Below, piece after piece: positions 1-57,718 of a DNA stretch of 64,000 nucleotides. The DNA is from Blastopirellula sediminis. GTDB lineage: Bacteria; Planctomycetota; Planctomycetia; Pirellulales; Pirellulaceae. The stretch covers positions 1,054,001 to 1,118,000 of the forward strand of contig NZ_JAJKFT010000010.1 in NCBI RefSeq assembly GCF_020966755.1. Reading direction: 5' to 3'. Below the pieces are notes generated by a model. That model was not told the origin of the DNA. It saw nothing but the letters and a program-made list of their open reading frames with translations, and did no database searches. Made by a program: the position numbers and the translations under genes. Numbering within the stretch: position 1 is the first letter of the stretch; every line of letters begins with the position of its first letter.

Positions 1-3000
1 CGTACCGATTGGAAGCGGCTGCAGCTGCCGTTTTCGATCGCGTTTCTTGCAGGCCTGATTCTGGTCATCCTGTGGACCAGCAGTTGGCTTCGTCCTCCGC
101 GGCCGACGCGATTCCTGTTGGCGGGCGCCGGTTACGAGACGAATCTCTCGGTTCCGCACAACGCTCTCGGCTGGAACGTGCTGGTCGACTTGCAAGAAGT
201 TTCTAATGACGCCCAGACGCAGCGCTATTGGGGCCATCGCTTGCTGCGCAGCGGCGACGGTCCGCAGCGGATGCAAATCGGCTGGCGTCCGAATCTGGAA
301 AACATCGACGAAAACAACGTCGTTTTGATGCTGACCGGGCATGGCTTCATCGGCGAAAAAGGTCCGGCGCTGCTGCCCGAAAACGTCGACCTTTCGAAAC
401 GTCCTGAAGCGATCAACATCTCCGACGTCATCGCCGAACTGCAAAAGCTGCCGGAACAGACCAACAAGCTGCTGATCATCGACAGCTGCCGCACAATCGT
501 CGCACCCCGCTTGGGACTACTTACGAACAACTTCTCCGACTCGATGCGCGAGCTCGACGCTGAGATTCGCAAAGCGCCGAATCTGACCGTCGTCATCGCG
601 GCCGACGTCGATCAGCGAGCCTTTAGCTACTACCAGCAACATCGCACCGCGATGGGGCACTACGTGATCGAAGGGTTGCGCGGCGCCATCACCGACAGCG
701 ACGACGACGGCCGCATCGACGCCGGCGAGCTGTTCCGCTACGTCGACAGCGAGTTAATGCAATTTGCCGCCGCCAACCACAACCGTCGCCAAAACGTGAT
801 GTTGCTGCCGCTCGGCGACGAAGGTACGACGCGCGCCGACGCCTTCGACCTGGGCGTGCTCCGCCCCGGCTACGAACCAGAGAAAGCCCCCACGCCGATT
901 CCGGTGACCGAATGGGAATGGATGACCGAGTTCTGGCAGCAGCAAACGTCCCTGGCGCAAGCCAAGCCGTCGGTGTTGCGTTTCGCGCCTCACATCTGGC
1001 GGCGTTATCAAGAGACGCTGCTGCGGATGGAATCGCTGCTGATCGCCGGCGACGTCGCCAACGCGTCCCGTCTGCGCAGCTCCGCTTCGGAACTGGCCAA
1101 CGCCCTGGAAAACGGACGACAATTGCCGCTGCAATCGCAGGACTTGTCCCTCTCGTGGCGAGCCGCCGCCGGTTGGTTGCAACCGTCGCCGGAAGCGGTT
1201 TCGTCGGCGGCGACCTTGTTGACCTCGACCGCGCCGCAAGATGTCCGAGCCACCTACGATCAATCGGCCCAGCAACAAATCGCCTTGGGAGTGCCGGAAG
1301 CGGCCTTCGCCGACGCGCTTCGCCGTGAGCTGCTGCTCCGTGCGGCGGAAGACCCGATTCGTCAACTCAATAAGAACTGGCGCGTGATCGGCTCGATCGG
1401 CCAATCGCACGAGACCGGCCCGACCGAACTGGTGTTCGTCGATCTCCTCTGCCAGCAGATCGACATGTCGAAGTTGTCGCCAGCCGACGCCGAAGCGATC
1501 GGCCGTGCGATCAAAACCAACCTGCTGGCCGAACAGGCCGCCGCTTCGACGGCCCTCTGGAGCACCGCTTTCTCGTCCCGCGTTGATGCTGCCGACTTGG
1601 AGCGTCGCTTGGGACAGGACCTCCTCTTTATCGATTCGTCGACTCGGTTGAAATCGATCGGACATTTCGAAACAGCCGCCAAGGCGTACGCGTCGATCAC
1701 CAACGACGTCGCCATCCTGATCCGTGCGATGGAAGCTCGCAACAACGCGCTGGCCGAACTGCCGTTCTATAACAACTGGACGATGGCCACGCCGCCGGAA
1801 TCAGGCGGACAAGGGCTGGAGATCCAGGTAATGAATCTGTGGGAGTCGGCCCATGATCTGGACGATCAAATGAACGGCGCCGTCTCGGCGACTGCGGTCA
1901 CGCCTGACATGCTTTCAACGCTGATCGGCCTGACGACAAAGGTCGAACAGCAACGTTTGGACCTGCAAAAGCAGAACGAACAAGAACAAACGTCGGCCTT
2001 CGTCGCCGACCCGAGCGAATCGCTCCGCCGCTTGAGCCGCGCGATGTTGCTGCCGGCCGCGGACGCCGAATCGCGCCGCAAGTTGCTGATCGCTTGCATC
2101 GACGCCACCGGCGCCGAAGTGGTCCGCGGCAACCAACCGGCGCCGTCGATTGAACAACAAGAGAAGTTCGCCAAGATCGACGCCGCTCGCGCCGGTCATC
2201 TTGTCCTGTCGCAGTTCGGCCAAACTTGGTTTGACCAGCTCAGCGGTTCGCGCGACGACGCCTACATGGTGACCAACCATCGCTTGGAAGTCTTTGGCGT
2301 CGAACAAATCTGGCGTCAGACGCTCGCCGACCTTGGGGCTGACTATGCTCAAAAGTGGCGCGAACTGATTCAGCTGAACACCCGCATTGACCGGGACGAT
2401 ATGGACCTGGCGATGATCGATCGGGTCGGCTCGCAATCGCGGATCATTCCGGCTGACGTTACCGCGGTCGACAACGACGCTCGCGACGCTCGCCGTGCGA
2501 CTCTAGCTGAAGCGGCGCTGCTGTTCGCGGGTCGCGCCTGGAACGAACATTGGGACGACCATGGGCAAACGCCTTACTATTTGCGTGCCGCTCGTCTCCT
2601 CTCGTCCGACGCGATTCGTTTCGGGCTGCATCCGCAGAAGATGACGCAGGAAGCGGCCCCGTGGCAACAAGCGGGGGACTTCGCTCTCACGTCGCTGGCG
2701 ATGCGCAACTGGACGACCGAAGCGACCGAGCAATATCACTTCGACCTGAAGATCGTCGGCGCCAATCCGCCGAGCGGCATTCCACGTTTTGGTTTTACGA
2801 CCAACGGCCTGCTCCGTCTGGCGGTTGATGACGACGCGATGCGCGGCATCGAATGGACCGGCGGCACGCCCAACGGCATCGACGTGCTGGTGGAAGCCGA
2901 CTTGAGCGGCGAGAAGGTCGCCAGCAATCCGGCGGAACTGAACGCGTTGATCGAAGGGACCGTCTTCTTCCGCGGACATCTCTCGACGGCCGACACCAAA

Positions 3001-4785
3001 GTGGTGATTCATCGTCGTCCTTCGAATCACCTGGTCAGCAATCCGGCTCCCGACGCCGCCAACCTGGCGATCGTCGCTTCGCCGGAACTGCATCAGCAAT
3101 ACGGATCCGGCGACGCCGCAATCACGATCGTGCTCGACGCTTCCGGCAGTATGGGCGCGCCGGCCGGACAACCGTTCGGCCCGCAAGCCAAGTACGCCGA
3201 GGCGGTTCGCGCCCTCGATCGCTTGCTCGAAACGATTCCCAACGGCACGCAGGTCAGCGTCTGGACCTTCGGCCAGGCGATGGGCTCGCAAAAGACGGTG
3301 GTCGAAGCGGAGCGAACGATTCAGCGTCTTGTCCCGCCGATCATCTGGAACAGCAAAGACAAGTCGCAGTACCAACAACTGACGCGGGCGATCACGTACC
3401 CACAGGTGGAGCCTTGGAACGAATCGCCGATCATGCGGACGATGATCGAAGCCAAGGGAGACCTGGCCGGCGTGAACGGACCGAAGACGATGTTGGTGAT
3501 TACCGACGGCGCCGACAACCGCTTTGCGAACGATTCGACCGTCAATCCGACCGGTAAGAGCGTCGCGGAAGCGTTGTTCGACATCTTCGACGGCAGCGGC
3601 ATTTCGATTCAGGTCGTCGGCTTTAAGGTCGTCAGCGCCGAAGCCGCGCTGGCCCAAAAGCAATTTGAACTAGTCGAACAGCTTTATCCGCCGGGCGGCT
3701 TTTACATGATCGATCGCGTCGAAGCGCTCGAAGCGCATTTGGCCAACGTGCTCAGCCGCCGGTTGACTTTCGTCACCGCTACTCCGCAGCAGCGGCAACC
3801 AGGTCCCGAACATCCGATCGGCGACATCGGCGGCGGGCAGATCTGGCTGACGCCGAATCTGAAACCAGGACGCCTGGCGGTCGAAACGCCGGTCGATCCG
3901 GCCTTGGCGCCGACGATCAACTTGCAGCGGGGAGACTTGATGCTGCTGCAACTTGTTTCGCAAAAGGACCAGCTCTCGCTGGTGACGGCCGACTACCTGG
4001 CTCAGCGTTTTCCGACACGCCCGACCATGACGACGTCTGGCTGGAAGTCGGCGCTGCTGCAAAACCGGATCGACGGCGACAAGCTGGAAATGACGCTCGG
4101 CATCCAGCAGCAGGCGTTGCAATTGGGAGACCTTTCGGTCATCAAGCCGTCGCGGATCTGGATCAGCGTCGGACGTCCTGACGGCCAATACGCCGCTTCG
4201 CATATCGTTCGGCAGAATGGATTCCCGATGGCGACCTACAGCATCGCCGCTTCCGACTGGCCAATCACCGGCGGGGTCGCTACTCCGACGGTCAGCCTGT
4301 GGTGGACCGTCGAAGACGACAACGTCGGCGTCGTGCTCCGTCAGACCAACGACTACGCCGCCCTCGAAGCGATTCAAGGTCAGACGGTCGAAACGAGCGC
4401 CGGGCAAGTTCAAATCCTCAGCGCCAACGTCGAGCAAACCCAATGCCTGGGCGCCGACGGCAAGCTGGCGACCGTTCGCCGCCTGGCGATTCGGACGCAA
4501 GCGGCGCCCGACGAAATCGTCTGGTGCGAACCAATCGGCTACCAAGCTGAAGGGATCGAAATCAAGGCGTTCCGCGACATCGGCGCGGCGACCTCTTACT
4601 TCTGGCCGCTGCCGGAAGGAAACGTCGACAGTATTGTCGCCGGTCTGCGAGTCGTGACGCTGAAAGATTTTCAGCGGCACGCCGAGCTGCGGGGGCAATA
4701 CCTGCAATTCAACGAACTGGCGCCTCCGGCGACGCGCGACTTCGCGCCTCGTCCGGCGCTGCGACTTAACGGCGACGCCAACTAG
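1..4785 (+). CDS. Membrane-anchored caspase-like (C14) protein with vWA domain, 5' truncated
   Basis: The reading frame is open from the first base, so the start lies upstream of the window; a TTG at 118 is only internal. The visible N-terminus is a membrane segment (about bases 28-90), so the rest is probably extracytoplasmic. A caspase-like fold follows. The His of a TGHG motif is at 340-342 and the Cys of an IIDSCR motif at 487-489, both as in active clan CD peptidases. A perfect EF-hand-type loop (DxDxDGxIxxxE) lies at 694-729, where bacterial C14 proteins often carry one. A long helical region follows, then a vWA domain with the MIDAS DASGS at 3136-3150 and a distal ITDGAD at about 3499-3516. 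The C-terminal third looks beta-rich. It is in an operon with the next gene, 17 bases away. Peptidase activity and a calcium requirement are inferred. The substrate is unknown. Confidence 0.85.
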   Translation, partial: RTDWKRLQLPFSIAFLAGLILVILWTSSWLRPPRPTRFLLAGAGYETNLSVPHNALGWNVLVDLQEVSNDAQTQRYWGHRLLRSGDGPQRMQIGWRPNLENIDENNVVLMLTGHGFIGEKGPALLPENVDLSKRPEAINISDVIAELQKLPEQTNKLLIIDSCRTIVAPRLGLLTNNFSDSMRELDAEIRKAPNLTVVIAADVDQRAFSYYQQHRTAMGHYVIEGLRGAITDSDDDGRIDAGELFRYVDSELMQFAAANHNRRQNVMLLPLGDEGTTRADAFDLGVLRPGYEPEKAPTPIPVTEWEWMTEFWQQQTSLAQAKPSVLRFAPHIWRRYQETLLRMESLLIAGDVANASRLRSSASELANALENGRQLPLQSQDLSLSWRAAAGWLQPSPEAVSSAATLLTSTAPQDVRATYDQSAQQQIALGVPEAAFADALRRELLLRAAEDPIRQLNKNWRVIGSIGQSHETGPTELVFVDLLCQQIDMSKLSPADAEAIGRAIKTNLLAEQAAASTALWSTAFSSRVDAADLERRLGQDLLFIDSSTRLKSIGHFETAAKAYASITNDVAILIRAMEARNNALAELPFYNNWTMATPPESGGQGLEIQVMNLWESAHDLDDQMNGAVSATAVTPDMLSTLIGLTTKVEQQRLDLQKQNEQEQTSAFVADPSESLRRLSRAMLLPAADAESRRKLLIACIDATGAEVVRGNQPAPSIEQQEKFAKIDAARAGHLVLSQFGQTWFDQLSGSRDDAYMVTNHRLEVFGVEQIWRQTLADLGADYAQKWRELIQLNTRIDRDDMDLAMIDRVGSQSRIIPADVTAVDNDARDARRATLAEAALLFAGRAWNEHWDDHGQTPYYLRAARLLSSDAIRFGLHPQKMTQEAAPWQQAGDFALTSLAMRNWTTEATEQYHFDLKIVGANPPSGIPRFGFTTNGLLRLAVDDDAMRGIEWTGGTPNGIDVLVEADLSGEKVASNPAELNALIEGTVFFRGHLSTADTKVVIHRRPSNHLVSNPAPDAANLAIVASPELHQQYGSGDAAITIVLDASGSMGAPAGQPFGPQAKYAEAVRALDRLLETIPNGTQVSVWTFGQAMGSQKTVVEAERTIQRLVPPIIWNSKDKSQYQQLTRAITYPQVEPWNESPIMRTMIEAKGDLAGVNGPKTMLVITDGADNRFANDSTVNPTGKSVAEALFDIFDGSGISIQVVGFKVVSAEAALAQKQFELVEQLYPPGGFYMIDRVEALEAHLANVLSRRLTFVTATPQQRQPGPEHPIGDIGGGQIWLTPNLKPGRLAVETPVDPALAPTINLQRGDLMLLQLVSQKDQLSLVTADYLAQRFPTRPTMTTSGWKSALLQNRIDGDKLEMTLGIQQQALQLGDLSVIKPSRIWISVGRPDGQYAASHIVRQNGFPMATYSIAASDWPITGGVATPTVSLWWTVEDDNVGVVLRQTNDYAALEAIQGQTVETSAGQVQILSANVEQTQCLGADGKLATVRRLAIRTQAAPDEIVWCEPIGYQAEGIEIKAFRDIGAATSYFWPLPEGNVDSIVAGLRVVTLKDFQRHAELRGQYLQFNELAPPATRDFAPRPALRLNGDAN

Positions 4786-4802
4786 CCTTGGGAGCATGAC
4801 GC

Positions 4803-7800
4803 GTGGATCCATCGGCTGAAACTCCGCTGTGGCGACAATTCGAACTACGTTCTCGCAGTGAAGCGACGACGTCCGGCGCGAAGTTTTCGCACCGGACGTT
4901 GATTGCGTTGGTCATTGCGCTGGGATTGATCGGCGCGATGGCGGGCGCCCTTGCGTGGTTCCGCGCGCAACCGCGAACCCAATTCGTCGGCTGCATCGTC
5001 ACTCGGTTCGGTCAGCTGGACGTCCAAGATCGGGTGGCCCATGACGCCGACCTGAAGGGAATGATCGCCGCGGGATACATTCCCGACACCGGCAAAGCCT
5101 CGCGTGGGATGCTGCATCGCGGCGAACTGATTGAGAAGTTCCTCAACCTCCGCAAGGCGTCCCAAAAGGAAACGGTCGTCATCTACCTTTCGAGCTACGC
5201 CACGCTGCAGGAAGATGCCGACGTCGATCTGATTCCCAGCGACTGGGATCTTTCCGACGGCGGCGCTTCGCTCGCGCAGCTGATGTCGGCGCTGCGGGAT
5301 TGTCCCGCCGAACGCAAATTGCTCCTCCTCGACATTACTCCCTTCACGTTGACGAACAATGAAGCGACCGGCGTCCAAGCGGCCGCCCTCAACATCGTCG
5401 AACAACTAAACGATCCCAACCTGGCGGTCCTCTTCAGCTGCTCGCCGGGACAATTGCCGCAATTGAACGAAGCGCTCGGACGTTCGCTGTTCGGCTATTA
5501 CGTCGAAACCGGTTTGCAGGGGGACGCGGATGGTTGGGGGAGCTACGCTGATGGTCGCGTGATCGCCAAAGAGCTGGCCGAATACGTCCGAGCTCGCACC
5601 ATCGAAACCAGCCTGGCGACGACCGGCGTCGTGCAAGCGCCCTATATGGTTGGCGAAACGAGTCGCGAGTGGGAGTTGTCGAGCGTAGGCGTGAAACCGA
5701 ACGCGACCCTCGTCGATACCGAACGAAAGTATCCCGAGTGGCTTACCAACGCCTGGAACACTCGCAACACGCTGCTGCAAGCAGGGAAAGATCGTTTCGC
5801 GCCGGGCGCCTTCGATCAACTCGATCGCGTGCTGCTGCAATCCGAGCGAGAATGGCGACTGGGGTCCGACTCCGATCGCTTGCAGCGTGACTTTGAACTC
5901 GCCAATCACTTTCTGAGCAAGCAACTGGCCGACTTCACGGCAGTTCGCCAATCGTTCCCGAACGTTTCTCTTTCGGACTATCGCGAAGAGGGGATTGCCG
6001 TTACGCCGGACGTCGCCAGCGCGATCACCTCCTACTTCGTGTCGCTCAACGATCTGGCCTCGCTTCCCAACGACCAGCGGATCGCCGCGGTGAAGAAGCT
6101 GCAAACCGAACTCCAAGCGAAACTCAAGACGGCGACGCGTATGGAGATCGCCCTGGCGCTCGACGATCAATTGCAACAGCTGGAGCAATTTGAGCCGAGC
6201 AAGTTCTCGGCCGCTTCCGACTTGTTGCAACTATGGGAACCGCATCCCCGCCAGATTGAAGAAGCGTATTGGCTTTGGTTGGCCCGCATGAAGCCGGGCG
6301 ATCCAAGCGCCCTCCGCTTCTACAATTGCATCTCGCAGCAGCAGGAGATTTCGTCCCGACTCGAGCCGCTGCCGTGGGTGCTGGGTTCGCTGACCGGCGC
6401 CGACCAATCGCTGCATGCGGCGAAAGTTGGCCTCACGTTTCCTGGCTATTTGCCGTCGACTTGGAACGCCCAAGAGCTGAGCGTCGCCCAGCCGCAACTT
6501 GACCGCATGGATCAGCTGTCGTCACGTCTGGCGACCGCGTACGACGTGACCCGCCGCGGGTATCGTCTCCGCTGGCTGATGGCCGAGACGGCGGTGGTTG
6601 AGCCTGATTCGTCGGTCAAAATCCGTACGGCGCTGCAACAGATCGATTACCTGATGACGCGGTTCTCGCATACCGGCGCGACCGTCACGCCTGCCGAAAT
6701 CCAGAGCGAAATGGCCCTGGTCGATCAGGGGATCGAAATCTCGGTACAGCTCGGCAAGGCCCTCAGCGAGTTCTCGCAACTTCCCGCTGACGCACAAATC
6801 ACGCAATGGATCGCCGACCTGACCAGTTCGCAGCCGACCGTCGCCGCCTATCGCCAGGCCGACATGTTGCTGCGAGCGCCGTGGGTCCCGGTCGACGAGC
6901 GAGCCCAGCTGTGCGCCGCGCTCCGCAAAGCGTCGTTCACATTGACCTCCGGCGTCTTGAATGCGCCGTCCCCTTCGTATCGCGAAGTCGATCTGGAAGC
7001 GCACTCTCGCGTCGACGTTCGATTGGCTTGTTACCTGCATGGCTTTTACTATCCGCAAATGTCAGGGGACGAATCGTCGCCGCGCAGTTCCGATGCGCCG
7101 ACGCCGGAGCAATCGCCGGCCGGTCCGCGGTGGGAACGTCTCTTTCAGTTGCAGGCCGACTACCGGCTGTTGCAAATGAAACGGATGCACACTTCCCAGG
7201 ACGACGGGATCTTCGATAGCGTCGAGCGCCGCTTGGCGCTGGTCGCTTCGTGCCCCACCTATCAACTTTCCAATAGCATCGGCCAGGTAACGTCGCGCAA
7301 CGGTCGGACGTCGATCGAAGTCGACTACCGCGTGATGACCTCCGATTCGCATGAGAAGACGCCGCAAATCGACGTCATCTCGCCGACCAGCTATCTGAAG
7401 GCGAGCGTCGTTTCATCGACGCCTGATCGTTCGGCGACGATTCGAGTGCAAGCGACGCCGGAAGCGACTCCCTCTCAACTGGCGGTCGTGCAGGGGGTGA
7501 TGATGACGTTCCAGACCTCATGGGGAACGATCTACCGCCCGATTCCGTTGCCGCCGATGTTCGATCACGAACTGGAACTGTTGGTCGCCGATACGCCGGA
7601 TGGTCCGCAGACCGCGCTGACCGAAATCGATCTTCGTCCGATCGCCGGGCGACAAACGCAATACTGGTTCCTCCGCAACGTCACCGACAAGTCGCTCAGC
7701 GTCAATCTGCAGATCGGCGCCGGCGAAATCTATCAGCAAAAGCTTGATATCCCTCCGCGCGGCGTCGCGCCGGTCATCATCGCCGGCAAACCGATCGCTG

Positions 7801-9194
7801 CGCCGGCGCCGCTGCCGACCGTTTCCGGCTCGATCAACATCAACGCGACCGAAGCGACCAGCGGCGACTCGCTGCTGCAGCAAGTGTTGCCGGTTCGCGT
7901 CTTGACCCCGCGCAGCTACGTACAGGTCACCGATACGCTATGCGAATATCGTCCCGGCGGGGCTCGCATTACGGCGACCCTCGCAGCGACGAACTTCCCA
8001 AGCGGGCCTCCCTCGACGGCGACGATCGAAATCACGCAAGAAGAGTTTCCGGCCTTGGTCAACATCGTCGGCGGCGTCCTGAGCAGCACGCTCGCCAGCG
8101 GTGATGAGCAAGTCCAACTCTCCGCCGATCTCTTGCTTTCGCCGACCGCCAGCCAAAGCGGCCAATGGCGGATCGCGATCGACGGCTACTCGCAGGCCTT
8201 CCGCTTTGACGGCATTGTGCCGAGCAGCTCCGGCCTTTCCAGCCCCAGCGCCAACAACAATCCGGCGATTCGTCTGCAAGCGCCGCAAATGCTGCGAACC
8301 GGTCAGCCGCTCAGCGCTCTGTTGATCGCCGAGAGCGCACCAGATGGAGCGTCGCTCGTCGCCCAGCTTGGCATCCCGAACAGCGACGGCTTTCTGGCCG
8401 AACGGACCGTCGCTTGTCCAACGCCGCAACAGTCAACCGTCGGCTTTTCGCCGATCGATCCGAAGGGCGCCATCCAGTGGACCGCCCAGCTGAACGACTG
8501 GAACGTCGAGCTCGACACCACCGGGATCGTCGGTCGCCGCCGCATTCAACTACAGATGCTTGACGCCGACGGCAACGTGATCGATCAAACGTGGCAAACG
8601 ATTGTGATCGACGACACGCCGCCGCGGAGCGTGCGTTTTACGACTTCACCGACCCTCGCCCAGGCCAAAAAGCCGGCGACCTTTGTCGCGACCGCCTTTG
8701 ACGGCGAAACCGGCATCGCCCAGATGCAAATGTTCATCGGCGAGCCGTTCGACAACGCTGTGCCGAAGGACGCTAAGCTCGTGCCGATGGTATTGGGCAA
8801 CGACGGCAACTTCTCCGCGCAGTTGACGCTCAACGATCTGGGTCGCAACTTTGTGACCGTCGTCGCGACCAACGGCGTTGGCATCCAAGCCTTCAAAACG
8901 ACGTCGGTCCATGTCCTCGACGAACTGCCGCCTCCGATGGCGACTATTCGCGGCGTGGTTCTGGAAGCGGGTCGTCCGCAACCTGGTTTGACCGTCACCC
9001 TGGCGGGCGCCGACGGCAAACCGATCAAGACGAGCGAAACGAGCCCCAGCGGCGAGTACGTCTTCGGCCAATTGACGCCTGGCGCCTACAAGCTGTCAGT
9101 CGTCAAAGCGGCGGCGGCCAGAAACGCGACCGCGGCAGCGGTCGGCAAGCCGGATCAGACGACGACCGTCGATTTGAATCTGACGCTGCAGTAG
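4803..9194 (+). CDS. Giant membrane-anchored pseudocaspase with C-terminal Ig/CarboxypepD_reg-like region
   Basis: The start is GTG at 4803, with a GGAG 8 bases upstream; the ATG at 4796 is out of frame. The 1463-residue protein has a basic N-terminus, a membrane segment at about residues 33-53, then a caspase-like fold. In that fold the strand that should carry SGHG reads LSSYA, putting Tyr132 at the His position. The strand that should carry DxC reads LLLLDITPF, putting Thr179 at the Cys position. The downstream SCSPGQ, FGYYV and EL-x-EYV landmarks of bacterial C14 domains remain. The EF-hand-like loop is present but interrupted by inserted residues. The helical region after it aligns by eye with that of the upstream protein. 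The last 250 or so residues look like an Ig-like fold followed by a carboxypeptidase-regulatory-like domain (IRGVVLEAGR...GEYVF). It is probably a catalytically dead partner or scaffold for the upstream caspase; this role is inferred. Confidence 0.85.
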   Translation: MDPSAETPLWRQFELRSRSEATTSGAKFSHRTLIALVIALGLIGAMAGALAWFRAQPRTQFVGCIVTRFGQLDVQDRVAHDADLKGMIAAGYIPDTGKASRGMLHRGELIEKFLNLRKASQKETVVIYLSSYATLQEDADVDLIPSDWDLSDGGASLAQLMSALRDCPAERKLLLLDITPFTLTNNEATGVQAAALNIVEQLNDPNLAVLFSCSPGQLPQLNEALGRSLFGYYVETGLQGDADGWGSYADGRVIAKELAEYVRARTIETSLATTGVVQAPYMVGETSREWELSSVGVKPNATLVDTERKYPEWLTNAWNTRNTLLQAGKDRFAPGAFDQLDRVLLQSEREWRLGSDSDRLQRDFELANHFLSKQLADFTAVRQSFPNVSLSDYREEGIAVTPDVASAITSYFVSLNDLASLPNDQRIAAVKKLQTELQAKLKTATRMEIALALDDQLQQLEQFEPSKFSAASDLLQLWEPHPRQIEEAYWLWLARMKPGDPSALRFYNCISQQQEISSRLEPLPWVLGSLTGADQSLHAAKVGLTFPGYLPSTWNAQELSVAQPQLDRMDQLSSRLATAYDVTRRGYRLRWLMAETAVVEPDSSVKIRTALQQIDYLMTRFSHTGATVTPAEIQSEMALVDQGIEISVQLGKALSEFSQLPADAQITQWIADLTSSQPTVAAYRQADMLLRAPWVPVDERAQLCAALRKASFTLTSGVLNAPSPSYREVDLEAHSRVDVRLACYLHGFYYPQMSGDESSPRSSDAPTPEQSPAGPRWERLFQLQADYRLLQMKRMHTSQDDGIFDSVERRLALVASCPTYQLSNSIGQVTSRNGRTSIEVDYRVMTSDSHEKTPQIDVISPTSYLKASVVSSTPDRSATIRVQATPEATPSQLAVVQGVMMTFQTSWGTIYRPIPLPPMFDHELELLVADTPDGPQTALTEIDLRPIAGRQTQYWFLRNVTDKSLSVNLQIGAGEIYQQKLDIPPRGVAPVIIAGKPIAAPAPLPTVSGSININATEATSGDSLLQQVLPVRVLTPRSYVQVTDTLCEYRPGGARITATLAATNFPSGPPSTATIEITQEEFPALVNIVGGVLSSTLASGDEQVQLSADLLLSPTASQSGQWRIAIDGYSQAFRFDGIVPSSSGLSSPSANNNPAIRLQAPQMLRTGQPLSALLIAESAPDGASLVAQLGIPNSDGFLAERTVACPTPQQSTVGFSPIDPKGAIQWTAQLNDWNVELDTTGIVGRRRIQLQMLDADGNVIDQTWQTIVIDDTPPRSVRFTTSPTLAQAKKPATFVATAFDGETGIAQMQMFIGEPFDNAVPKDAKLVPMVLGNDGNFSAQLTLNDLGRNFVTVVATNGVGIQAFKTTSVHVLDELPPPMATIRGVVLEAGRPQPGLTVTLAGADGKPIKTSETSPSGEYVFGQLTPGAYKLSVVKAAAARNATAAAVGKPDQTTTVDLNLTLQ

Positions 9195-55847: not shown

Positions 55848-56290
55848 AGACCGAACGAATCCCGCTATCTTCCCATCCACTCTGGCTTGCGGCGGGCTAC
55901 GTGTCGTTACCTCTATATGATGGTAAGTCGCGATCGTGAATTTCTGAATTTTTCTCGTGCTATCGGTCTATGCCGGTCGATGGAACTGTCTACTTACGCT
56001 GTTATCCGCGACAACACGCTGAATCTCGGGGCAGCCTCCAGTACGGAGGGAAGACTCAGCAGGGCAGCACGGATAGCAGCGTTTTTTCGTTCTTGACCAA
56101 CTGACTGCAGATCTGGTCGGCAAATCCGCAGCAAGCGGTACATGCGGCAAATTGAGAAATCTACCGCCTCTCATCTTCGCTAACCCGCAATCTGGCCGAA
56201 GTTAACCGACATGCGCCAAGGCGTTCTTGCGGCTTGGCGTGCGCAATTCTCCCCCCGATTTCGCCTGCAGAGACTAACGAGGAAACTGCC
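55848..56290. other. Intergenic region between panD and tssK
   Basis: This 443-base gap contains a short open frame at 55887-56096 without protein-like features. I see no repeat or RNA gene. It presumably contains the tssK promoter. Confidence 0.4.
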
Positions 56291-57718
56291 GTGCTGACCA
56301 GCAACGCCGTCCACTGGTACGAAGGAATGTTTCTTTCGCCTCATCATTTCCAGGCGTCAGAAATGCACCAGGCCTATCAAAATCGACGGGGCGATCTCTG
56401 GATCCAGCGACATCATTGGGGCCTCCGTTCGATCGATCTCGATATCGACGCGTTGACCAACTCGCGACTCGTCGTTCGTTCGCTCGAAGCGCGTCTCCGC
56501 GACGGCGTGACCGTTTCCCTTCCCAGCGACGGTCAACTGCCGGTCATGGATTTGCGCCACGCGATGGCCGATCGTCAGAATCTGACGATCTATCTGGCCG
56601 CGCCGCAATTGGTTTCGGGGCAATCAAACGTCGCCGACAGTTCGGGAGCACACGCGCGTTACCTGGTCGAAAACCTCGACGTCGAAGATCAAAACAGCGG
56701 TTCCAACCAACAAACCATCCAGATCCGCCGGCTCAACTTGCGATTGCTGCACGACGGCGACAATCACGCCGGTTACGAAACGCTGCCGATCGCCCGCATC
56801 CGCCGTTCCGACCGGGGCGAAGCGGTGCCGCAGCTCGACGAAACGTACATTCCGCCGCTGTTGGCTTGCGACGCCTGGCGTCCGCTGCAAGCGAACATCT
56901 TGCAACGCATCTACGATCGCCTGGGGCGCAAGCTTGATCTCCTCTCGTCGCAGATCGTCAGCCGTAAGATCTCGTTCGACAGTCGCGGGCAAGGGGACCA
57001 GCAGCTGCTCGAACAGCTGCGAGCGATCAACGAATGCTACCCGGCGATCCAGATGATCGCGTTCACGCCTGGGACGCACCCGATCAACGCCTTCTACGAA
57101 TTGGCCCGCACGATCGGCAAGCTGGCGGTCTTCGGCTCGATGCGTCGTCCGCCGGAAATGCCGGCCTATGACCATGACGATCTGGCCGGCTGCTTCTGGC
57201 GACAGAAACAGTACATCGACGCGCTGCTCGACGCGGTTGTGGAGCCTGACTATCGCGAACGTCACTTCGAGGGCGCCGGTCTCCGAATGCAGGTCGACCT
57301 TGAACCATCGTGGTTGGAAGGCTCGAACAAACTGTTCGTCGGCGTCGAAAGCTCGCTGCCGCCGCAACAGGTTGATCGCCTGCTCACCCGCGGACTCGAC
57401 ATGAAGATCGGCAGCAGCGACAAAGTGGTCGAACTCTATCGCTTGGGTCAGGCCGGTCTCCGGTTCAACTACGCCAGCCATCCGCCGCGCGCATTACCCG
57501 CGTTGCCGGGGGTCTCGTATTTCGAGATCGATCGCGACAGCCAACCGGCGCAGTGGGATCAGGTGAAACATTCGCTGACGCTGGCGATTCGTCTGAACGA
57601 AAACCTGATCGTCAGCGACATCGAAGGGCAACGCCGCTTGACGATTCGGGTCGACGGACAATCGACCACGCTGCAGTTCACGCTCTACGTTGTGCCAAAC
57701 GAACCGGGCGTCGCCTAA
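56291..57718 (+). CDS. tssK: Type VI secretion baseplate subunit TssK
   Basis: I choose the GTG at 56291, with GAGG about 9 bases upstream; the frame runs back to 56234 but the usual TssK start fits here. The 475-residue protein begins LTSNAVHWYEGMFLSPHHFQ, a family signature of TssK (ImpJ/VasE), followed by the conserved WGLRSIDLDIDAL. Later parts include RRPPEMPAYDHDDLAGCF and GLRFNYASHPPRALPALPGVSYFEID. TssK links the T6SS baseplate to the membrane complex. No other tss gene is in the window, so it is either a gene at some distance from the main cluster or an orphan. The next gene is an unrelated dehydrogenase. Confidence 0.85.
   Translation: MLTSNAVHWYEGMFLSPHHFQASEMHQAYQNRRGDLWIQRHHWGLRSIDLDIDALTNSRLVVRSLEARLRDGVTVSLPSDGQLPVMDLRHAMADRQNLTIYLAAPQLVSGQSNVADSSGAHARYLVENLDVEDQNSGSNQQTIQIRRLNLRLLHDGDNHAGYETLPIARIRRSDRGEAVPQLDETYIPPLLACDAWRPLQANILQRIYDRLGRKLDLLSSQIVSRKISFDSRGQGDQQLLEQLRAINECYPAIQMIAFTPGTHPINAFYELARTIGKLAVFGSMRRPPEMPAYDHDDLAGCFWRQKQYIDALLDAVVEPDYRERHFEGAGLRMQVDLEPSWLEGSNKLFVGVESSLPPQQVDRLLTRGLDMKIGSSDKVVELYRLGQAGLRFNYASHPPRALPALPGVSYFEIDRDSQPAQWDQVKHSLTLAIRLNENLIVSDIEGQRRLTIRVDGQSTTLQFTLYVVPNEPGVA

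What the first reader, a model, noticed from the sequence alone, without database searches (positions are those of the whole stretch)
1..9194. Operon of an active caspase-like protein and a matched pseudocaspase
Both giant proteins share an N-terminal membrane anchor, a caspase-like fold and a similar helical region. The first keeps His (340-342) and Cys (487-489). The second has Tyr132 and Thr179 at these positions, yet keeps the fold landmarks. The proteins differ after that: one has a vWA domain, the other an Ig/CarboxypepD_reg-like end. Pseudoenzyme partners of caspases regulate activity in eukaryotes (for example cFLIP). An operon-encoded bacterial pair of this type is not something I know to be described. 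Function as a periplasmic signalling or death-like switch is inferred.
Basis: partly seen in the sequence, partly recalled or inferred. Interest (0 to 1): 0.88.

Follow-up and report, generated by a model that had tools for sequence, protein, structure and literature searches.

The report
Dead caspases in a secretion machine
Two giant membrane proteins with a caspase-like fold, mostly without the catalytic residues, were found as a matched pair in the planctomycete genomes examined that have a certain type VI secretion system, where they may stand in for the missing outer half of the machine's membrane channel.

Summary
The pair is real and conserved, but the "active caspase plus pseudocaspase switch" is not what is conserved. 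A (<1-4785; 1641-aa ORF starting upstream of the window) and B (4803-9194) are paralogues: tail, one TM helix, caspase fold, long helical region, then vWA (A) or Ig/CarboxypepD (B). Nearest named genome: Blastopirellula marina. The His-Cys dyad is present in 4 of 35 A-type proteins (one genus) and 0 of 35 B-type; the vWA MIDAS is kept in 30 of 30 aligned A-type. [quoted passage not shown] All 34 have a short TssM (frames 482-689 aa); the 13 examined end at a C-terminal membrane helix. TssJ is detected in 1 of 34. In 28 T6SS-positive genomes of other classes TssM is long and no such giant is found. Best reading: A and B form the periplasmic part of a non-canonical T6SS membrane complex. T6SS membership is well supported; the structural role is inferred.

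The parts
1..4785 (+). A: giant membrane-anchored caspase-fold/vWA protein; 5' end outside the window (ORF starts at window -140)
10..12 (+). Trp of the second of two W-[RKH] motifs in the N-terminal tail of A
   Evidence: motif in 60 of 67 tails, 23.7 expected after shuffling
19..75 (+). A: predicted transmembrane helix (residues 54-72)
   Evidence: hydropathy
106..858 (+). A: caspase-like domain (about residues 83-333)
   Evidence: AlphaFold2; Foldseek MALT1
340..342 (+). A His161 (GHG), catalytic His position
487..489 (+). A Cys210 (DSCR), catalytic Cys position; present in 4 of 35 A-type proteins
904..2667 (+). A: long helical region (about residues 349-936)
   Evidence: first part homologous to B
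3118..3684 (+). A: vWA domain (from about residue 1087; modelled to 1275) with MIDAS DASGS at 3136-3150 and the conserved Asp at 3505-3507
4803..9194 (+). B: giant membrane-anchored pseudocaspase/Ig protein, 1463 aa, GTG start
4830..4832 (+). Trp of the tail motif of B (PLWRQ)
4899..4955 (+). B: predicted transmembrane helix (residues 33-51)
4977..5684 (+). B: caspase-like domain (about residues 59-294), dyad replaced by Tyr132 (5196-5198) and Thr179 (5337-5339)
5736..7187 (+). B: helical region, its first part homologous to that of A (end of the region modelled with low confidence)
7260..9185 (+). B: series of beta-sandwich (Ig-like) domains (modelled to residue 1255), ending in CarboxypepD_reg (8943-9185)
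56234..57718 (+). TssK (T6SS baseplate) of the same genome, apart from the main T6SS cluster
   Evidence: PF05936 E 2e-82

Best explanation
A and B are dedicated components of the T6SS of class Planctomycetia. Each is held in the inner membrane by one helix, with a short tail facing the cytoplasm that carries a W-[RKH] motif and about 1410 (B) to 1570 (A) residues facing the periplasm. In this class TssM stops at its last membrane helix and TssJ is hardly ever detected, so the machine seems to lack the usual trans-envelope part. A and B most likely supply it: their caspase-fold, helical, vWA and Ig-like domains build the periplasmic cage, while TssL and the short TssM remain as the cytoplasmic dock for the TssK baseplate. 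The caspase fold serves as a structural or binding module. Shown: co-occurrence, gene linkage, short TssM, loss of the dyad, conserved MIDAS. Inferred: topology, physical contact, cage role.
For: Both A and B in 34 of 34 T6SS-positive genomes examined in the class. In the 40 relatives, frames of at least 1400 aa with E<=1e-6 in 21 of 21 TssB-positive and 0 of 19 TssB-negative genomes; the 1400-aa limit was set after seeing the data, and the five T6SS-negative near misses that I then read are other architectures. G027 and G038, with two strong TssB each, have two A and two B. A or B within 3 kb of a T6SS gene in 30 of the 34: B-TssM-A in six, TssK-TssL-TssM-A in two, B within about 400 bp of TssK in seven. 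TssM short in 34 of 34 inside, long in 28 of 28 outside; 13 of 13 short ones examined end at a membrane helix, while 17 of 20 long ones fetched carry 680-1099 aa beyond TM3 and 3 could not be placed. TssJ in 1 of 34 inside, 14 of 28 outside. No giant in the 28 outside genomes. G022, the only in-class genome with TssJ and a long TssM, also has a short TssM and the pair. The own genome has TssA, B, C, E, F, G, K, L, Hcp, short TssM and VgrG. Tail motif in 60 of 67. Precedent: the Bacteroidota complex TssNQOPR lacks TssJLM and has a vWA-like domain in TssR and PKD-like domains in TssP (PMC10781749, passages).
Against: No interaction or localisation data. No detectable homology of A or B to the TssM periplasmic part (hhalign) and no TssM among the 50 listed Foldseek hits of each model. 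TssM truncation and the giants are both class-wide, so their link may reflect one shared ancestry rather than repeated events. In Blastopirellula the pair sits with VgrG, not with TssM, and in G021, G022, G038 and G039 no T6SS gene was seen in the fetched stretches. The TssJ model misses 14 of 28 and the IcmF_C model 21 of 28 genomes with a long TssM, so their absence is weak evidence. One outside genome, G136, has a 633-aa PF14331 frame besides its long one. G337, a partial genome of another class with no TssK match, has one A-type gene on a 7.7-kb contig. How the outer membrane is reached is unexplained.
Confidence: 0.62

Rival explanations
1. The pair is a T6SS accessory or regulator, not its scaffold: a periplasmic sensor that holds or releases the machine, the vWA and caspase folds binding a signal or partner.
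For: The vWA MIDAS is conserved in 30 of 30 aligned A-type proteins. In Blastopirellula and others the pair neighbours VgrG rather than the membrane-complex genes.
Against: One set per T6SS of this kind, two sets where there are two (G027, G038); direct B-TssM-A order in six genomes; it would leave a machine with no known trans-envelope part.
Confidence: 0.24
2. One reading: an active caspase-like protease (A) controlled by its pseudocaspase partner (B), a death-like switch.
For: GHG and D[ST]CR in the A protein of all four genomes of the genus; caspase fold in both.
Against: 31 of 35 A-type proteins lack Cys at the aligned position although the pair persists; the four HC proteins nest among dyad-less ones; linkage is to T6SS genes. 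In 10 of the 31 a Cys stands one residue earlier, so a shifted nucleophile is not excluded there.
Confidence: 0.05
3. VgrG-linked effector, chaperone or immunity function of the pair.
For: VgrG lies within 1.4 kb of A or B in Blastopirellula, G009, G027, G030, G126, G233, G305, G360, G366 and G414.
Against: Membrane anchor, size and one set per T6SS do not look like variable cargo; in other lineages the neighbour is TssM or TssK.
Confidence: 0.07

Closest known systems
T6SS membrane complex of Bacteroidota, TssN-Q-O-P-R (PMC10781749, outline and passages seen)
   Same: T6SS without the canonical TssJLM; single-pass inner-membrane proteins with periplasmic parts; a vWA-like domain (TssR) and PKD-like domains (TssP).
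   Different: Here TssL and the cytoplasmic half of TssM are kept; two giant paralogues with a caspase fold. Homology to TssNQOPR was not tested.
Canonical T6SS membrane complex TssJ-TssL-TssM (PMC10433429, passages seen)
   Same: TssL and the N-terminal half of TssM are present.
   Different: TssM ends at its last membrane helix; TssJ not detected in 33 of 34; the periplasmic cage must come from elsewhere.
TagP of Pseudomonas putida K1-T6SS, a TssM derivative with a peptidoglycan-binding domain in place of its periplasmic C-terminus (PMC10433429, passages seen)
   Same: A TssM whose periplasmic part is changed.
   Different: A fused peptidoglycan-binding domain, identified in silico; here the part is absent and two separate giants accompany it.
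Bacterial pseudo-orthocaspases (PMC6426788, passages seen)
   Same: Caspase p20 fold without the His-Cys dyad; Tyr at the His position is common.
   Different: Nine tenths of those are from Alphaproteobacteria or Cyanobacteria; 'planctomycet' does not occur in that text, and the passages shown mention no T6SS.
cFLIP(L), the human pseudo-caspase (PMC7586951, search listing only)
   Same: A caspase-fold pseudoenzyme beside homologous partners.
   Different: It is a paralogue of active caspases (listing; its regulating role is recalled); here the partner is itself dyad-less in most genomes.

Membership tests
Caspase / orthocaspase (peptidase C14) | caspase fold | tested here: met
   AlphaFold2 and Foldseek to MALT1, probability 1.00 for A and B, E 1.0e-3 and 7.7e-5
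Caspase / orthocaspase (peptidase C14) | His-Cys dyad | tested here: not met
   4 of 35 A-type (one genus), 0 of 35 B-type; met only for A of this genus
Caspase / orthocaspase (peptidase C14) | match to PF00656 | tested here: not met
   no PF00656 match; the own-genome search with PF00656 finds four other loci, not A or B
Caspase / orthocaspase (peptidase C14) | proteolytic activity | not testable with these tools
   needs purified protein
Active caspase + regulatory pseudocaspase pair (cFLIP-like) | one partner with an intact dyad wherever the pair occurs | tested here: not met
   A lacks the aligned Cys in 31 of 35
Canonical T6SS membrane complex TssJLM | TssM with a large periplasmic domain | tested here: not met
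   34 of 34 in-class genomes have a short TssM, G022 having a 1045-aa one in addition; 13 of 13 examined end at a membrane helix; PF06744 in 1 of 34, but also in only 7 of 28 outside
Canonical T6SS membrane complex TssJLM | TssJ lipoprotein | tested here: inconclusive
   PF12790 in 1 of 34 inside and 14 of 28 outside; a divergent TssJ is possible
Canonical T6SS membrane complex TssJLM | TssL | tested here: met
   PF09850 in own genome and in L064, L141
T6SS (as a machine) | sheath, tube and baseplate genes in the same genome | tested here: met
   TssB, TssC, Hcp, TssE, TssF, TssG, TssK, VgrG in own genome
Bacteroidota complex TssNQOPR | homology of components | not tested
   only domain make-up compared with PMC10781749
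MoxR-vWA ternary conflict systems (PMC7159879) | MoxR ATPase partner | not tested
   no targeted search made

The most novel reading that the evidence does not exclude
Planctomycetia run a distinct T6SS subtype whose trans-envelope channel is built by two giant caspase-fold pseudoenzymes in place of the TssM periplasmic half and TssJ; and in Blastopirellula one of them has regained a His-Cys dyad within a dyad-less clade, so that the channel there carries a built-in protease.
Probability: 0.15. Interest if true: 0.92.

Novelty: new variant of a known kind. Interest (0 to 1): 0.78.

Why it matters
A T6SS needs a path through the envelope. In the passages I read, two such paths are described, TssJLM and the Bacteroidota TssNQOPR. 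A third solution, made from caspase-fold proteins that mostly lack the catalytic residues, would show that the envelope part of the machine has been replaced more than once, would explain how planctomycetes with a truncated TssM could fire, and would give pseudocaspases a structural job in bacteria. It is directly testable in Blastopirellula or another cultured relative.

Tried and rejected
cFLIP-like switch as the general function: rejected because the aligned Cys is missing in 31 of 35 A-type proteins.

Simple split of TssM into two genes (A or B being its periplasmic half): hhalign of A and B against 17 long-TssM periplasmic parts gave probabilities of 0.1% or less, A/B profiles found nothing in the long or short TssM sets, and no TssM is among the 50 Foldseek hits listed for each model. 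A non-homologous replacement is left; a very remote relation is not excluded.

Defence system: no PADLOC match for either protein. NCBIfam gave for A only a weak match to caspase_w_EACC1, 20.4 bits against a cut-off of 140.

Chance or misread frame: rejected. Both frames are open and conserved at 78-86% identity in three sister genomes.

Near misses in T6SS-negative relatives: I fetched frames of G016, G017, G020, G026 and G033. In G016, G017 and G026 the caspase-like match lies near the C-terminal end of the protein. G033's frame has GHG and a DCCH motif and no match to the helical-region profiles; in G020 neither full-length profile gave a hit. None has the A or B architecture.

A genome-contig scan with the A-type alignment was not possible. 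The phylum search scored only five candidates per genome, so its negatives are weak; I re-ran 28 out-of-class genomes and four others with all or nearly all candidates scored. The greedy ORF picker chose shadow ORFs in GC-rich loci; the L146 giant and four long TssM were corrected. Type A or B was assigned from the C-terminal part, partly by eye, for the first 53 proteins and by full-length profile score for the later ones; the tree of the caspase domain alone does not separate the two types cleanly. Three of the 35 B-type rows (L146, L147, L148) were assigned by position and size; the B profile does not find them. Fragments (L221, L223, one in L210) and L222, which starts inside the domain, were left out of the dyad count. 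In the most divergent rows the aligned positions are uncertain.
Full report
WHAT IS THERE. The window opens inside gene A. Taken from its own genome (L005), A is an ORF of 1641 aa beginning at window -140 and ending at 4785; B (4803-9194, GTG start, 1463 aa) follows after 17 nt. The nearest named genome is Blastopirellula marina DSM 3645, 81% identity in A (class Planctomycetia).

ANATOMY. A and B share one plan: a short tail, one predicted transmembrane helix, a caspase-like domain and a long helical region with one helix of about 50 residues. AlphaFold2 gave mean pLDDT 83.9 and pTM 0.74 for A residues 76-1275, and 76.8 and 0.55 for B residues 56-1255. Foldseek lists MALT1 paracaspase for both with probability 1.00 (A: best E 1.0e-3, 3v4o TM-score 0.60 by target length; B: E 7.7e-5, 8v4x TM-score 0.43) and vWA folds for A; the top-ranked hits are BON1 for A and TEP1 for B. 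The profiles of A-type and B-type proteins align over 620 columns with probability 100 and E 9e-50, so the two are paralogues through the caspase domain and much of the helical region. After that A has a vWA domain and B a series of Ig-like domains ending in CarboxypepD_reg.

THE DYAD IS NOT WHAT IS CONSERVED. I compared 35 A-type and 35 B-type proteins with a readable caspase domain (dropped rows are named under Tried and rejected). His and Cys together occur in 4 of 35 A-type proteins, all from the same genus, and in 0 of 35 B-type. The four nearest A proteins outside the genus have His but Thr or Val in place of Cys. In 10 of the 31 A-type proteins without Cys at this place a Cys stands one residue earlier, so a shifted nucleophile cannot be excluded for those. 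On a tree the four HC proteins nest inside the dyad-less clade (supports 99/99, 94/84, 96/83), and the HC label needs two changes once classical planctomycete caspases are added. That tree's bootstrap had not settled, it warns of long branches, and it does not separate A and B types cleanly. The dyad of this window may be a regain, or a relic with repeated losses elsewhere; activity is untested. By contrast, MIDAS residues of the vWA domain are invariant in the 30 A-type proteins aligned (D1093, S1095, M1098 and D1216 of A; S1097 in at least 90%).

WHAT THE PAIR GOES WITH. In 40 related genomes, TssB (PF05591) is present in 21. With the caspase-domain profile A1, frames of at least 1400 aa with E <= 1e-6 occur in 21 of those 21 and in 0 of the 19 others. 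I set the 1400-aa limit after seeing the data. The nearest misses are G026 (1386 aa, E 2.1e-18) and G017 (1401 aa, E 7.5e-5); read with three further T6SS-negative cases, they have other architectures, with the caspase-like match near the C-terminus (G016, G017, G026) or without a match to the helical region. In a phylum sample of 392 genomes, TssK (PF05936) is found in 82. Sixteen of these belong to the class, and all 16 have a giant; four TssK-negative genomes of the class match the profile only with shorter frames. Over the 34 T6SS-positive genomes of the class that I examined (21 relatives, 13 more from the phylum sample), 34 of 34 have both an A-type and a B-type gene; G022's A and G034's B are fragments at contig ends, and in G160, G220 and G395 the B is assigned by position. 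In 30 of the 34, A or B lies within 3 kb of a T6SS gene: beside TssM (within about 230 bp) in ten genomes, one of these (G012) beside a 202-aa TssM-like frame, with the order B-TssM-A in six (G144, G160, G220, G338, G395, G406); and beside TssK within about 400 bp in seven. In G322, A lies between TssM and TssF inside one run TssK-TssL-TssM-A-TssF. The four without a T6SS gene in the stretches fetched are G021, G022, G038 and G039. G027 and G038 have two strong TssB matches each and two A and two B each; G022 also has two strong TssB matches but one pair, and has an additional long TssM and TssJ.

WHAT IS MISSING FROM THE MACHINE. PF14331 (N-terminal domain of TssM) was found in 62 of 62 T6SS-positive genomes searched: these 34 and 28 from other classes. 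In the class the frame is 482-689 aa in 34 of 34 (G022 has an additional frame of 1045 aa); outside, 28 of 28 have a frame of 1133-1683 aa (G136 has also one of 633 aa). In 13 of 13 short TssM examined, from 13 genomes, a hydrophobic segment ends within 17 residues of the C-terminus, at the place of TM3. Of 20 long ones fetched, 17 have 680-1099 aa after TM3; in 3 my rule did not place it. TssJ (PF12790) is found in 1 of 34 genomes of the class and 14 of 28 outside; IcmF_C (PF06744) in 1 of 34 and 7 of 28. These two models therefore miss many genomes with a long TssM, and their absence is weak evidence. The one in-class exception in both is G022. None of the 28 outside genomes has a giant of this family (longest matching frame 1105 aa). 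One contrary case: G337, a partial genome of another class without a TssK match, has an A-type gene on a 7.7-kb contig.

THE TAIL. Before the membrane helix most giants of both types carry W followed by R, K or H: 60 of 67 proteins with a located helix, against 23.7 expected when each tail is shuffled; four rows without a located helix were left out. The sequences are related, so this is not 60 independent events, but the motif is shared by A and B types whose tails are otherwise unlike. It suggests a common docking site in the cytoplasm.

HOW IT MOST LIKELY WORKS. The own genome has TssA, TssB, TssC, Hcp, TssE, TssF, TssG, TssK, TssL, VgrG and a short TssM, that is, sheath, tube, baseplate and the cytoplasmic half of the membrane complex. 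B. marina has been reported to harbour 12 typical T6SS genes in two genome locations (PMC2702493, passages). In the canonical machine the periplasmic domains of TssM, with TssJ, form the double ring in the periplasm (PMC10433429, passages). Two giant single-pass proteins that accompany the shortened TssM in every genome of the class examined are good candidates to take that place. The Bacteroidota complex TssNQOPR shows that a T6SS can do without TssJLM and that vWA-like and PKD-like domains occur in the replacement (PMC10781749, passages and outline). I put the structural role at 0.62 and plain membership of the T6SS, in any role, at about 0.9. Topology, contacts and the path through the outer membrane are inference.

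AGAINST. No homology between A or B and TssM's periplasmic part was detected. The truncated TssM and the giants are both class-wide traits, so their association rests on few evolutionary events; the contrast between T6SS-positive and T6SS-negative genomes within the class is the stronger test. In Blastopirellula the pair is next to VgrG and far from TssM (TssM at C10:633302, A at C10:1053860).

IN PRINT. Searches for caspase with type VI secretion and planctomycetes, TssM with planctomycetes, T6SS with Planctomycetota and membrane complex, Rhodopirellula, caspase-like with von Willebrand and type VI secretion, Blastopirellula with T6SS and unusual TssM listed no paper whose title or abstract start describes such a complex in planctomycetes; only open-licence PMC papers are held. 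PMC5394234 (passages) says that, of three planctomycetes, only R. baltica had a high number of T6SS-related genes. Bacterial pseudo-orthocaspases are well known (PMC6426788, passages). A paper on conflict systems links vWA and caspase-like domains in MoxR systems (PMC7159879, passages); I did not search for MoxR neighbours here.

I read five near misses, added the shifted Cys, the post-hoc length limit, the G136 frame and the limits of the tree, and moved TssJ to inconclusive.

Noticed in passing
L005:5991-7838 (-), about 2.2-4.0 kb upstream of the window: ORF of 615 aa beside VgrG with a long run of GGAGGAAEG-type repeats; its first 200 residues match a 251-aa protein beside VgrG in G027.
   Followed up: partly
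L005:3490-5864 (-): VgrG-linked set: a 190-aa protein, two DUF6931 proteins and a 170-aa protein; the 190-aa and DUF6931 genes recur beside VgrG in G027.
   Followed up: partly
L061:6492-12190 and L062:5206-13566 (G029): Two clusters of three tandem caspase-like proteins of 450-916 aa with GHG and DACR motifs.
   Followed up: no
G048:C25: Ten weak matches to the caspase profile lie within about 46 kb on one contig, in frames of 627-993 aa.
   Followed up: no
window 56234-57718: TssK stands apart, about 473 kb from the TssA-TssB-TssC-Hcp-TssE-TssF-TssG cluster of the same contig.
   Followed up: yes
G022 contigs C250, C263: A TssJ and a long TssM with IcmF_C in a genome that also has the short TssM and the pair: a second, different T6SS or contamination.
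   Followed up: no
L225:329-4480 (-) (G026, T6SS-negative): 1383-aa protein whose start looks kinase-like to me (not scanned) and which carries a caspase-like domain near its C-terminus.
   Followed up: no
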